From positions 1 through 26,162 of the IMG/VR virus record IMGVR_UViG_3300014913_000068: a stretch of DNA of 26,162 bases. One strand, given 5' to 3'. This document shows, in pieces, positions 4,940 through 26,107 of this stretch; position 1 is the first letter of the stretch, and each line of letters begins with the position of its first letter. The stretch comes from a virus. A program made the position numbers and the translations under genes. Under the pieces are notes generated by a model that worked only from the letters and a program-made list of their open reading frames with translations, made no database searches and was not told the origin of the DNA.

Positions 4940-4951
4940 TAGGAGATAAAA

Positions 4952-6174: not shown

Positions 6175-6216
6175 CGGCGGCGGGACTCCCTATTTTTAGG
6201 GAGTCCTATACCCGCT
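6175..6216 (+). terminator. Hairpin after the capsid gene, terminator-like
   Basis: A perfect 10-base inverted repeat (6183-6192 and 6197-6206) with a TTTT loop lies between the capsid stop and the next ATG. A weaker outer pairing of GCGGG (6180-6184) with CCCGC (6211-6215) can alternatively form. The stem is followed only by CTTTTA, so the U tract is weak: it may attenuate transcription, protect the 3' end of capsid mRNA, or both. Confidence 0.65.
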
Positions 6217-13105: not shown

Positions 13106-14914
13106 ATGCCTGAAGAAATAAAAGATACTTCAACAGAATCCAGTCAAGATACTGGAGATGGTATTACAGGTGCTTTGAGCACTACTTTACAAGCTCAATG
13201 GTTGGATGAACAGCAAAGAGAAAATGATATCCAAACTATTCAAAAAGATCTTACTACAGAGAGACTTTTAGAAGAATCTGCGGGAAAAGTAGGTGGTTAT
13301 GACGATATACAAGATGCTGAAGACAATTTATTGACTAGTTATATTCCTCCTGTGGATGAATCTCAAAAAATATCAGATCTTAATACTTATCTTCAGGGAC
13401 TGGAAGAGAAAAGAAAAAGAGAAAATGATGTACCGACGGCTGCAATGATTCTTGGAGGAATTGCTTCAGCTATTGGAGTTGGCGCAGGTCTTCCAGGAAT
13501 ATTTGCTGGTGGACTTTTGCTAAACGCAGCGGGTCAAAGAGAACAAAACAGAAGAACTCAATTTTATAATCAGAAACGAGAGGAAGCTATTGACGTTTTT
13601 AAGACTAATATTCAAAGAGATGTAGCTTTACAGTCTGCACTTATTTCAGGAAGTGCGGCAAAAAGTGCAGCAAAAATAGCTGCTGAAGCAAATAAATTTA
13701 GAACGATAACATTAGCTAAAACAGCAGATTTAGATAGACAAGTTGAACAATCTAAAATTGAAATGATGAAGAGTCAAAATAAAATTGAGTATGATAAATT
13801 ACAAGAAAGTATTAGACAATTTGATAAAGAATTCCTTTTAAAAGAAAAGGAAGTAGAAGCTAAAATTAAGAGAGGAGAGAAGATAACTCCTGACGATAAA
13901 AAGGTAGAGACTTTAGATAATTACACAAGTGAGACAGAAAGAACAATTGTAAACGAAGCTACGGGATTTTTTACTACACATTCTCAATACAATCAAGAAT
14001 TATTACAAGCTGCTGTATTAATAGATGCTGGTAAACTGACTGATGCTGGAAAAATGATTGAAGTGATTACAAATAAAGTGTATCCTAAATTACAGAAACA
14101 TATACAGCAAGTCCCTACTGCTGCTGGCCGTGAAGTTGAAACAAGTAAATTAGTACCTAAAGTTGTAAAGGCTTTTGTAAATGATATAATTCAAACAGCA
14201 CTTGAACAGCCAGATAGTGATATAGCTAAAAGACTTGCTGAAGCTAGAGGATTTACATCTATACAAGAAGAAAAAGCTAAAGCTAAAGCTGTAAGTCCAA
14301 GATTAGAACCGACACCTATAGGTAAAGGAATAATGAAGGATGAATTTATTCAGAAAGATACTGGTAAATATAATACAACTCTTATCAAAAATGCTTTAGC
14401 TTACGATCCTCGATCTTATGATAGAGATTTATATGAACCTAGAGATATTAATCAGAATCAAGAAGCAGTAGATAATTATCTATTTAAAGCTATGCATGAA
14501 CTTTTTCAAGTGTCTGGAAAATTTGGAATTCCTAATGCAATATTTGAAGAAGGCAATACTGATCCTGAAGATATAAAATGGTTTGGGACGTTTTTAGGCA
14601 TGGATAGGCCAGGGTACCCACAAGAGATTATTGATTTTACCCCTATGACTGAGAAAGATGAAATAAAAGGATATGGAGACTTTGAAGTGAAAAATAAGCG
14701 TGGTATTCGTCCACAGAGTAAAAAGTATTTTTATAGAGGAGATTATTATAGAAAGTTAGCACGTGAAAGAGATAAAAAATATGACTCATTTGATCTTTTT
14801 GTAAAGAAGGTTTTAGAAGAAGTTAAGAAAGGTAATGTGTCTCCTGCTTTTATGGAAAAATTTAAGCATGTGACGACGATTACGAATCAGGCATATGAAG
14901 AGGTTCCAGAATAA
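13106..14914 (+). CDS. Probable internal/ejection protein with glycine-zipper segment
   Basis: A 602-residue protein with AAGGATG upstream. Residues 1-108 are acidic and hydrophilic. A hydrophobic Gly/Ala-rich stretch follows at ~111-142 (MILGGIASAIGVGAGLPG), which looks like a glycine-zipper membrane hairpin. Then comes a long helical, probably coiled-coil region (~143-260) and a mostly helical C-terminal half. This layout matches internal core proteins that form a channel across the bacterial envelope on infection (T7 gp15-like or P22 gp20-like role). It ends with TAATG, sharing a base with the next, still larger core protein, so the two are made together. No enzymatic motif is visible. Confidence 0.65.
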   Translation: MPEEIKDTSTESSQDTGDGITGALSTTLQAQWLDEQQRENDIQTIQKDLTTERLLEESAGKVGGYDDIQDAEDNLLTSYIPPVDESQKISDLNTYLQGLEEKRKRENDVPTAAMILGGIASAIGVGAGLPGIFAGGLLLNAAGQREQNRRTQFYNQKREEAIDVFKTNIQRDVALQSALISGSAAKSAAKIAAEANKFRTITLAKTADLDRQVEQSKIEMMKSQNKIEYDKLQESIRQFDKEFLLKEKEVEAKIKRGEKITPDDKKVETLDNYTSETERTIVNEATGFFTTHSQYNQELLQAAVLIDAGKLTDAGKMIEVITNKVYPKLQKHIQQVPTAAGREVETSKLVPKVVKAFVNDIIQTALEQPDSDIAKRLAEARGFTSIQEEKAKAKAVSPRLEPTPIGKGIMKDEFIQKDTGKYNTTLIKNALAYDPRSYDRDLYEPRDINQNQEAVDNYLFKAMHELFQVSGKFGIPNAIFEEGNTDPEDIKWFGTFLGMDRPGYPQEIIDFTPMTEKDEIKGYGDFEVKNKRGIRPQSKKYFYRGDYYRKLARERDKKYDSFDLFVKKVLEEVKKGNVSPAFMEKFKHVTTITNQAYEEVPE

Positions 14915-20051: not shown

Positions 20052-20115
20052 GCCCTATATATAAGTAGGTAGAAACTCGAACATATCTATTTAAATTGAT
20101 TAGTGACTGTCTTCA

Positions 20116-20148
20116 TAACTCCTTATATACTAAGGAGTTAAAATTTTT
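20116..20148 (+). terminator. Rho-independent-type terminator closing the virion module
   Basis: A perfect 10-base inverted repeat (20116-20125 and 20131-20140) with a 5-base TATAC loop is followed by AAA and TTTTT at 20144-20148. It lies 65 bases after the last virion-module gene. A second, outer pairing ACTGTC (20106-20111) with GACAGT (20169-20174) is followed by six T residues (20174-20179), so a nested back-up terminator is possible. Confidence 0.75.
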
Positions 20149-20158
20149 CAGAATTTTC

Positions 20159-20187
20159 TTGAGTATGTGACAGTTTTTTGTTAGAGT
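20159..20187 (+). promoter_or_regulatory. Possible sigma-70-like promoter for the replication module
   Basis: TTGAGT (20159-20164) and TAGAGT (20182-20187) are separated by 17 bases, with a TG just upstream of the -10-like box (20179-20180, one base of spacing, the extended -10 pattern). Start of transcription would be near 20194, giving a ~27-base leader to the helicase ATG, with AGGTGA as its ribosome binding site. The position directly after a terminator supports it; both boxes are imperfect. Confidence 0.3.
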
Positions 20188-20220
20188 GGGAATACTCTGA
20201 AAACATGAGGTGAAATAAAT

Positions 20221-24080: not shown

Positions 24081-24099
24081 TACTCTTTAGGGTTTAAAT

Positions 24100-24206
24100 A
24101 GGGAGAATATATTGGAAAAGAATTTAGATACTCTTATCTTTATTTAGACAGCCTAGGATGTTTATCTAAGGATGGACCTAAATTGGACCTACAGTATATC
24201 CTCCCT
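24100..24206 (+). other. Structured domain I (long-range hairpin)
   Basis: Arms 24100-24114 and 24192-24206 pair over 14 positions: six pairs, one A/C mismatch (24106/24200), then eight pairs including one G-U. Inside, a hairpin AGATA-CTCT-TATCT (24126-24139) and another at 24145-24150/24159-24164 with loop GCCTAGGA can form; TTAGATA (24124-24130) can alternatively pair with TATCTAA (24163-24169), so two folds compete. TTTCTTT follows the closing arm. Confidence 0.55.
24173..24191 (+). repeat. Tandem 8-base direct repeat, 11-base period
   Basis: TGGACCTA occurs at 24173-24180 and again at 24184-24191, so the copies lie on the same face of the DNA about one helical turn apart. This is the geometry of iterons or of a dimeric protein's binding site. 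Only two copies are present and they lie inside domain I. Confidence 0.5.
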
Positions 24207-24221
24207 TTCTTTGACAATCAT

Positions 24222-24329
24222 AGAGCATGGGCGGGTTCCTTCCTTGAGTCCCCTGTATCCCTCACCTCTAGTGAAGGTCGTTACCATGATAACGCCTCCA
24301 ACCCAAACGATCCGATCGTCCCATGCTCT
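24222..24329 (+). ncRNA. Structured domain II (GC-rich, three-way-junction fold), candidate RNA
   Basis: A perfect 10-pair closing helix joins 24222-24231 to 24320-24329. Inside, GGGTT (24233-24237) pairs with AACCC (24300-24304), and ACGA (24307-24310) pairs with TCGT (24316-24319), directly stacked on the closing helix: a compact three-way junction with one- and two-base linkers. Within the second helix lie a hairpin CGTTA-loop-TAACG (24279-24294), extended by AGG/CCT pairs around a bulged T278, and a small TCAC-loop-GTGA hairpin (24262-24274). By hand count 59 of 108 bases are G or C, against roughly a third in flanking genes. Strand of transcription cannot be decided, and no known family is recognised. 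Confidence 0.45.
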
Positions 24330-24339
24330 TTATCTTTAT

Positions 24340-24415
24340 AGGGGATAGGATAGATTGAATCTTATGTTGTACGTCTTGTACACCCGATTGTGCTATTATT
24401 ACTATCCTATCCCCT
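24340..24415 (+). other. Structured domain III (14-pair stem before polymerase)
   Basis: Arms 24340-24353 and 24402-24415 are perfectly complementary (14 pairs). The 48-base interior holds a second stem AATC/GATT (24358-24361, 24386-24389) enclosing a hairpin TGTAC-GTCTT-GTACA (24368-24382). The closing arm is followed by TTCCTTTATCTT, so it could act as an attenuator or terminator just before the polymerase start, or as a leader structure. Confidence 0.55.
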
Positions 24416-24442
24416 TCCTTTATCTTAAAAAAGGAGATTTTC
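24415..24442 (+). promoter_or_regulatory. Polymerase ribosome binding site with its own anti-Shine-Dalgarno hairpin
   Basis: AAGGAG at 24431-24436 sits 6 bases before the polymerase ATG. The pyrimidine tract TTCCTTT (24415-24421) can pair with AAAGGAG (24430-24436) across an 8-base loop, which would cover the whole site. This hairpin can coexist with most of domain III, sharing only base 24415, so polymerase translation may be held low by default. Confidence 0.45.
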
Positions 24443-26107
24443 ATGCGGACTTATATAGCTATAGATACCGAAACTACTGGATTAGATATCCATAAAGACA
24501 AGCCTTTTCTAATCGGTACTATAGATAATAAAGGGACATATAATTTCTTAAAAGAATCAGACTTTAAAAAATTACCAGAAATCGTCGGCGACTCCATTCC
24601 TATTTTTCATAATGCCAAGTTTGATATTCTAATGCTAAAGAATGTCGGGTTTGATTTCTCTGATAGGGAATTCCATGATACACAATTAATGGCTTTTAAT
24701 GCTGATAGTAGAAAGAAGTTTCCATCGTTAGATTATTTAGTTAATAGATATCTTAAACGAGAACGTCCGTTTAATGAGATAGTTAAATTGATGATTAAAC
24801 TTGAAAAGAAAACTTATCAAGAAATACCTGAAGATATTATGTATAAGTATTTATATGAAGATGTAAGTGATACATTAAGATTATTTTATTTCTTTCTTCC
24901 TCTATTGAAAAATAGGTCTTATTTAGCAGATATTAGGTTGTTACCTACTTTATTAGTTATGGAACAAAGAGGTGTTCAGATATCAACTGATAAGATTCAT
25001 GAAGCAGCAGAAGAAGTGATAATGAAAATAAATAATCTAAGCAAAAAATTAAAAGAATCTTTAGGAGATATCAATCTCAATTCTTGGCAGCAAACTAAAA
25101 AAGCGTTCAAAGATAGATTAAATATCTCACTTCCAAGTGTCCAGAAGATATCCCTACTTAAAGTAGTACATCATACGGCTATTGAGTTAATCGAGTATAA
25201 AAAATGGAATAAATTATTGAGCACTTATTTAATGGGATTTCTCAAACGAAAAACTAATCGAAACACGATTCATACTACATATAATCAAGTTATACCAGTG
25301 ACAGGAAGACTATCTTCAAGTAATCCAAATCTTCAAAATATTCCAAAACGAGATAAGGAAGCTGCAAACTATATTAGAAAATGTATTGTAAGAAGGGATG
25401 GTTTTGTAAATTATGGCTTTGATTATTCGCAAATAGAATTAAAAATATTTGCTTGCACAGCTCAGTGTAAGAAAATGCTTAGCTATTTTAGTGAAGGAAT
25501 CAATGTGCATAGAGAAACTGCTAAATTTATTTTTAGCACACAGGAACCTTCTAACTCACAATATTATATTGCAAAGCAAATTAATTTTGGAATCATTTAT
25601 GGAATGGGACCAATAAGATTTGCTAAAGAGTTAAATGGATCTGCTTATCCGCAGGGACTTATTGATGATCTGATATCTGTAGATCAGACAAAGGAATGGT
25701 ATGAAATATATCACGAAATCTATCCAGAGATTAGTGACTATATGAATCGCTGTATTAAAACAATACACAATAATGGAAAGATAGTTGATATATTTGATAG
25801 AACATACTACCTAAAACCAGAAGAGTCTTATAAAGCAGCCAATTATACTATTCAAGGACCGGCAGCTACTATTCATAAAGAAGGACTTAGACGATTTTAT
25901 GAATGGAGTAGAGGTTTTAAAAATAAAATCAATCCAATTCTCATCATTCATGATGAAGTTATTGTTGAATTGATAGAAGATCTAGAATTTCTATGGGATC
26001 AAATCCCACATCAACTCAACGATTTAAAAAGTTTAGATCTGCCTATACGAGTGGATATTAATAAATATGGAGAAAACTTATCAATTAAGGAGGAGATTAA
26101 TGTATAG
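24443..26107 (+). CDS. Family A DNA polymerase with 3'-5' proofreading domain
   Basis: The replicative polymerase of the phage, 554 residues, on the small side for phage PolA proteins. The proofreading domain has Exo I DTETTG (D8, E10), Exo II FHNAKFD (D61) and Exo III YLYEDVSDT (Y136, D140). The polymerase domain has the template-contact motif TGRLSSSNPNLQNIP (287-301), motif A FDYSQIELK (D327, E332), motif B AKQINFGIIYGMG (K378, F382, Y386) and motif C IHDEVIVE (H503, D504, E505). F382 is the residue that, when Phe, discriminates against dideoxynucleotides. Oddly, the fingers arginine four residues before the motif B lysine (R754 in E. coli Pol I) is a tyrosine here (Y374). No 5'-nuclease domain is present. 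AAGGAG precedes the ATG, and its end overlaps the next gene by 8 bases. Confidence 0.95.
   Translation: MRTYIAIDTETTGLDIHKDKPFLIGTIDNKGTYNFLKESDFKKLPEIVGDSIPIFHNAKFDILMLKNVGFDFSDREFHDTQLMAFNADSRKKFPSLDYLVNRYLKRERPFNEIVKLMIKLEKKTYQEIPEDIMYKYLYEDVSDTLRLFYFFLPLLKNRSYLADIRLLPTLLVMEQRGVQISTDKIHEAAEEVIMKINNLSKKLKESLGDINLNSWQQTKKAFKDRLNISLPSVQKISLLKVVHHTAIELIEYKKWNKLLSTYLMGFLKRKTNRNTIHTTYNQVIPVTGRLSSSNPNLQNIPKRDKEAANYIRKCIVRRDGFVNYGFDYSQIELKIFACTAQCKKMLSYFSEGINVHRETAKFIFSTQEPSNSQYYIAKQINFGIIYGMGPIRFAKELNGSAYPQGLIDDLISVDQTKEWYEIYHEIYPEISDYMNRCIKTIHNNGKIVDIFDRTYYLKPEESYKAANYTIQGPAATIHKEGLRRFYEWSRGFKNKINPILIIHDEVIVELIEDLEFLWDQIPHQLNDLKSLDLPIRVDINKYGENLSIKEEINV

What the first reader, a model, noticed from the sequence alone, without database searches (positions are those of the whole stretch)
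24222..24329. Candidate new structured RNA between the SSB-like and polymerase genes
A 108-base segment closed by a perfect 10-pair helix folds on paper into a tight three-way junction (linkers of 1 and 2 bases) with further well-formed hairpins. It is about 55% GC by hand count in a genome whose genes are roughly a third GC, which is the classic mark of a functional structured RNA in AT-rich DNA. Its purine bias is also opposite to the coding strand of the neighbouring genes, so a transcript from the - strand is possible. I recognise no tRNA, riboswitch or ribozyme core in it.
Basis: partly seen in the sequence, partly recalled or inferred. Interest (0 to 1): 0.78.

Follow-up and report, generated by a model that had tools for sequence, protein, structure and literature searches.

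The report
Three-hairpin leader before phage polymerase gene
In an uncultured virus, the stretch just before the DNA polymerase gene folds into three long hairpins in a row; it is real and non-random, but no relative of it was found, so it is most likely a local control region for that gene and cannot yet be called a new class of RNA.

Summary
The observation largely holds. Segment 24222-24329 has a perfect 10-bp closing helix. Its GC (54.6%) is tied for the highest of any 108-nt stretch in this 33%-GC record, and its strand bias is reversed. It folds better than dinucleotide shuffles (z about -3 to -3.5), but only through the closing helix: the 88-nt interior folds no better than shuffles (z about -0.8). 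The stronger feature is outside the coordinates. The 362-nt gap holds three consecutive long-stem domains (24100-24206, 24222-24329, 24340-24415), then a small hairpin over the polA ribosome-binding site. None of 2000 shuffles gave three such stems. Rfam has nothing. The three closest polymerases with upstream DNA read (32-34% identity) start directly after another ORF, and no homologue of the element was found, so covariation cannot be tested. Best reading: a lineage-specific leader acting in cis on polA, mechanism inferred. A replication-origin hairpin cluster is the main rival. Interest is low to moderate. A side lead is more promising: a conserved, Rfam-less noncoding stretch beside a 26-tRNA array in another phage contig (L148/L040).

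The parts
   Evidence: ORF; Pfam DUF669 E 0.037, 14.6 bits against cut-off 21; no PHROG match
24081..24442 (+). 362-nt noncoding gap, the longest in the replication module; presumed polA leader
   Evidence: gap list; fold -100.5 (+) / -111.1 (-) kcal/mol, z -3.2 / -4.0
24100..24206 (+). domain D1, 15-nt arms 87% complementary, 77-nt loop; holds the direct repeat TGGACCTA
   Evidence: I4; z -3.6 on both strands
24222..24329 (+). domain D2, the segment reported: perfect 10-bp closing helix, 88-nt GC-rich interior
   Evidence: I8
24340..24415 (+). domain D3, perfect 14-bp closing helix, 48-nt loop; the strongest structure of the gap
   Evidence: I3; z -4.4 (+) / -6.1 (-); a 14-bp stem appears in 0.025% of shuffles
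24416..24435 (+). small hairpin TCCTTT/AAAGGA that covers the polA Shine-Dalgarno AAGGAG (24431-24436)
   Evidence: pair probabilities 0.82-1.0 over the SD; SD pairing 0.95 in local folds
24443..26107 (+). DNA polymerase family A with 3'-5' exonuclease domain, 554 aa
   Evidence: Pfam DNA_pol_A E 1e-67, DNA_pol_A_exo1 E 3e-12

Best explanation
The 362-nt gap is the untranslated leader or intergenic part of the + strand operon mRNA just before polA. It folds into three consecutive stem-closed domains (D1, D2, D3) followed by a small hairpin that covers the polA ribosome-binding site. It most likely acts in cis on polA expression: the stems would stabilise or direct processing of the mRNA, and the last hairpin would limit translation until a protein (possibly the polymerase or the upstream DUF669-like protein) or processing changes the fold. 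Shown: the stems, their non-randomness as a trio, no recognisable coding potential, and predicted pairing of the ribosome-binding site. Inferred: that it is transcribed, that it acts as RNA, and on what it acts.
For: Three disjoint long-stem loops in the gap, seen in 0 of 2000 dinucleotide shuffles, with two in only 1. Domain z-scores -3.6, -3.05 and -4.4 on the + strand. All main genes lie on the + strand. The + strand downstream of each 3' arm is T-rich, while the corresponding minus-strand flanks are not (sequence). No sigma-70-like promoter and no terminator-like site within the gap on either strand, so read-through from upstream is the simplest source of transcript. The polA Shine-Dalgarno is paired with probability about 0.95. 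Precedent: T4 gp43 and gp32 repress their own translation through RNA structures in their leaders (PMC3014915).
Against: No relative of the element was found, so no covariation. The three nearest polymerase genes with upstream DNA read start 0-10 nt after another ORF, so the leader is not a general feature of this polymerase clade. A highly paired Shine-Dalgarno is not special here: the major capsid gene (1.0) and the gene at 14914 (0.99) score as high. The minus strand of the gap folds better. No transcript data.
Confidence: 0.42

Rival explanations
1. The gap works as DNA: a hairpin-rich origin of replication or binding region for the replication proteins, placed among the replication genes (helicase, exonuclease, Sak4-like annealing protein, polymerase).
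For: Location in the middle of the replication module; long perfect inverted repeats; D1 holds the direct repeat TGGACCTA..TGGACCTA and an imperfect palindrome around CCTAGG; inverted repeats are strand-neutral, and the stability of D1 is similar on both strands.
Against: Cumulative GC skew shows only a local dip here and no lasting change of direction; only two repeat copies, too few for a clear iteron array; D2 is the most GC-rich stretch, not an AT-rich unwinding region.
Confidence: 0.2
2. D2 (or the three domains) is a free-standing small RNA of the phage, possibly read from the minus strand.
For: D2 is more stable on the minus strand (-42.3 against -32.9 kcal/mol), with 7 G-U pairs in the minus-strand fold against 1 in the plus-strand fold; purine bias fits a minus-strand transcript.
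Against: No promoter-like site for it on either strand in the gap or just downstream; interior folds no better than shuffles on either strand; no homologue.
Confidence: 0.16
3. The segment is a recently acquired GC-rich insert (for example a host palindromic repeat or a small transposon-like element) without function for the phage.
For: Composition and strand bias differ sharply from the rest of the record; the D2 arm pattern also occurs in REP-like palindromes of one gammaproteobacterial assembly (L130, L135); absent from relatives.
Against: No target-site duplication is seen next to the arms; the ten genome hits are near the number expected by chance (my own estimate, about 6) and their interiors do not resemble D2; D1 and D3 have ordinary composition yet the same architecture.
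Confidence: 0.15
4. The stems are intrinsic terminators of the upstream operon.
For: GC-containing stems followed by T-rich stretches on the + strand.
Against: Loops of 48-88 nt are far too long for an intrinsic terminator, the tails are interrupted, and the terminator scan finds none here while it finds one at 20116-20140.
Confidence: 0.05

Closest known systems
T4/RB69 gene 43 translational operator (DNA polymerase autoregulation)
   Same: An RNA hairpin in the leader of a phage DNA polymerase gene, near or over the ribosome-binding site.
   Different: T4's is an 18-nt (RB69 16-nt) hairpin with a UAAC loop bound by gp43 (PMC3014915); here there are three domains of 76-108 nt plus a small hairpin with the loop ATCTTAAA, and the polymerase is family A.
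GOLLD / ROOL / OLE large ornate RNAs
   Same: Large noncoding structured RNA; from general knowledge, some lie among phage genes.
   Different: No Rfam match to any of these even at relaxed thresholds; the region here is about 340 nt, the window has no tRNAs, and no relative of the element was found.
Phage replication-origin hairpins
   Same: Long inverted repeats in a noncoding gap among replication genes.
   Different: No skew switch, no clear iteron array, no AT-rich unwinding element at D2.

Membership tests
Any Rfam 15 family | Covariance-model match at the gathering score | tested here: not met
   No match in the window; with E up to 5 only three sub-threshold chance-like matches in the gap, none in D2
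T4-type gene 43 translational operator | Polymerase is the family B gp43 that binds the operator | tested here: not met
   The gene is DNA_pol_A with a DNA_pol_A_exo1 domain; that gp43 is family B is general knowledge
T4-type gene 43 translational operator | Short hairpin with UAAC-type loop upstream of and into the ribosome-binding site (PMC3014915) | tested here: not met
   The hairpin over the SD has the loop ATCTTAAA, not UAAC
T4-type gene 43 translational operator | Binding of the polymerase to its own leader represses translation | not testable with these tools
   Needs a binding and reporter assay
Structured RNA supported by comparative evidence | Compensatory base changes across homologues | tested here: inconclusive
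   No homologue found by DNA similarity, arm patterns or a single-sequence covariance model over about 1.6 Mb of related loci
tRNA or tmRNA | ARAGORN or Rfam tRNA match | tested here: not met
   None in the window
Intrinsic terminator | Short GC-rich hairpin with loop of 3-8 nt and a run of T | tested here: not met
   No site in the gap
Replication origin | Repeated initiator-binding sites and a change of GC-skew direction | tested here: inconclusive
   One pair of 8-nt direct repeats in D1; only a local dip of the cumulative skew
RNase III processing site | Cleavage by RNase III in a double-stranded stem | not testable with these tools
   Needs RNA 5'-end mapping

The most novel reading that the evidence does not exclude
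The gap encodes a previously undescribed three-domain phage RNA (about 340 nt) whose fold controls the polymerase gene, or acts on its own, with no counterpart in Rfam.
Probability: 0.12. Interest if true: 0.55.

Novelty: new member of a known kind. Interest (0 to 1): 0.24.

Why it matters
If it does control polA, it would add a family A phage polymerase to the phage replication genes governed by structured leaders, which reporter assays could settle. As it stands it is an orphan: one sequence, no relatives found and no expression data.

Tried and rejected
Close relatives in IMG/VR by PolA and by terminase: none. DNA similarity of the gap in phages and plasmids: none of substance. Terminase-profile relatives, searched for PolA and Sak4: PolA in 3 of 40 records, none with this upstream gap. 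PolA motif patterns led to the nearest polymerases, G041, G045 and G046, whose polA has no upstream gap. A PolA-profile scan gave 80 loci; the few with gaps over 200 nt (L148, L179, L161, L156) show no related element. L139, also about 34% identical, was covered only by the automatic gap listing. The D2 arm pattern in viral contigs (4 hits) and genomes (10 hits): interiors unrelated, numbers near chance. D3 arms: no hit. Small ORFs inside the gap: no Pfam match, so a hidden gene was judged unlikely. A phage-type promoter reading of TTTAAATAGGGAGA just before D1 was considered; the 21-mer TTTAGGGTTTAAATAGGGAGA occurs once with up to 3 mismatches and no recurring motif was found, so it was left aside. 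RBS sequestration as a specific sign of regulation was rejected because other genes score as high.

Full report
What the record is. The window is a whole 26,162-nt IMG/VR virus record. Its main genes run on the + strand: terminase, SU10-like portal and capsid proteins, then a replication module with an SNF2-type helicase, a PD-(D/E)XK exonuclease, a Sak4-like annealing protein, a 147-aa protein with a sub-threshold DUF669 match, and a family A DNA polymerase. It is remote from everything searched: the best phage matches of its terminase, portal and capsid are about 20-28% identical, and scans of viral contigs with its own polymerase or terminase found no close relative.

The observation. The segment 24222-24329 is as described: a perfect 10-bp closing helix, GC 54.6%, tied for the highest 108-nt window in the record, and a reversed purine bias. 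The 108 nt fold better than dinucleotide shuffles on both strands. Removing the closing helix removes the signal: the 88-nt interior has z -0.8 and -0.9. Coding windows elsewhere in the record reach z below -4, so the z-score of D2 alone would not single it out.

What is really there. The whole 362-nt gap 24081-24442 is structured. It holds three consecutive domains closed by long stems: D1 24100-24206 (15-nt arms, 87% complementary), D2 24222-24329 (10 of 10) and D3 24340-24415 (14 of 14). Domain z-scores are -3.6, -3.05 and -4.4 on the + strand and -3.6, -3.5 and -6.1 on the - strand. In 2000 dinucleotide shuffles of the gap none had three such stems, one had two and 92 had one. D2 and D3 are the only tandem pair of perfect inverted repeats of at least 10 bp with loops of 30-110 nt in the window. 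Behind D3 a small hairpin, TCCTTT/AAAGGA, covers the polA Shine-Dalgarno sequence. No ORF tested in the gap matches a family.

Relatives. Neither DNA similarity, arm patterns nor a single-sequence covariance model over about 1.6 Mb of related loci found a homologue; that model has little power for diverged relatives. The nearest polymerases whose upstream DNA I read (G041, G045, G046; 32-34% identity) start 0-10 nt after another ORF. Of the 80 polymerase loci most have short gaps, and the few long gaps are unrelated. The session's tools may leave out records very near the window, and metagenome contigs could not be scanned, so close relatives may exist. Covariation is therefore untested, not absent.

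Mechanism. The most economical reading is a cis-acting leader of polA on the operon mRNA: the main genes run that way, no promoter-like or terminator-like site lies in the gap, the T-rich flanks follow the 3' arms on the + strand only, and the ribosome-binding site is predicted to be paired. Phage replication genes with structured leaders are known (T4 genes 32 and 43; PMC3014915). However, a paired ribosome-binding site is not special in this record, and the - strand of D2 folds better. A DNA-level role as an origin is the main rival. No step beyond the predicted folding is shown.

Verdict. The structure is real as a trio of stems and is an orphan. It is not a member of any family tested. 'New structured RNA' remains possible but is not supported for the 108-nt unit alone.

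Side lead. While reading polymerase neighbourhoods I found that L148, from a 45-kb viral contig, carries 26 tRNA genes followed by about 985 nt with no convincing gene before polA. Part of it folds at z -4.8, and 375 nt of it are 84% identical (a core of some 200 nt is nearly identical) to a stretch of L040, a contig in which no tRNA was found. Neither matches Rfam, and L148 has no match in GenBank phages. That is a better candidate for an undescribed large phage RNA than the finding I was given.

Noticed in passing
L148:3941-4925 (+) and L040:1062-1404 (-): About 985 nt of apparently noncoding, strongly folding sequence between a 26-tRNA array and polA in one phage contig; a 375-nt part is 84% identical to a stretch of another contig (L040) in which no tRNA was found. 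No Rfam or GenBank phage match. Candidate undescribed large phage RNA in a GOLLD-like setting.
   Followed up: partly
L161:9152-9223 (+): Type II hammerhead ribozyme above the Rfam gathering score in a polymerase-bearing viral contig.
   Followed up: no
L042:343-452, 1939-2029, 2153-2238: Three elements of 86-110 nt in mostly gene-free stretches, closed by perfect stems of 19, 11 and 13 bp, in a contig with a terminase related to the window's; MITE-like or RNA-like.
   Followed up: partly
window 6183-6206: Perfect 10-bp hairpin with a 4-nt loop right after the major capsid gene, inside a longer GC-rich stem; looks like a terminator or processing site.
   Followed up: no
window 20052-20220: The other long gap: a 10-bp terminator-like hairpin (20116-20140) before the replication module.
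   Followed up: no
L130:6688-6792 and L135:4534-4634: REP-like palindromic arrays (GTTCCCACGCAGAGCATGGGAAC and relatives) at two places in one gammaproteobacterial assembly.
   Followed up: no
window 4941-4946: The Shine-Dalgarno of the major capsid gene is predicted fully paired (1.0), unexpected for a gene that should be highly expressed.
   Followed up: no
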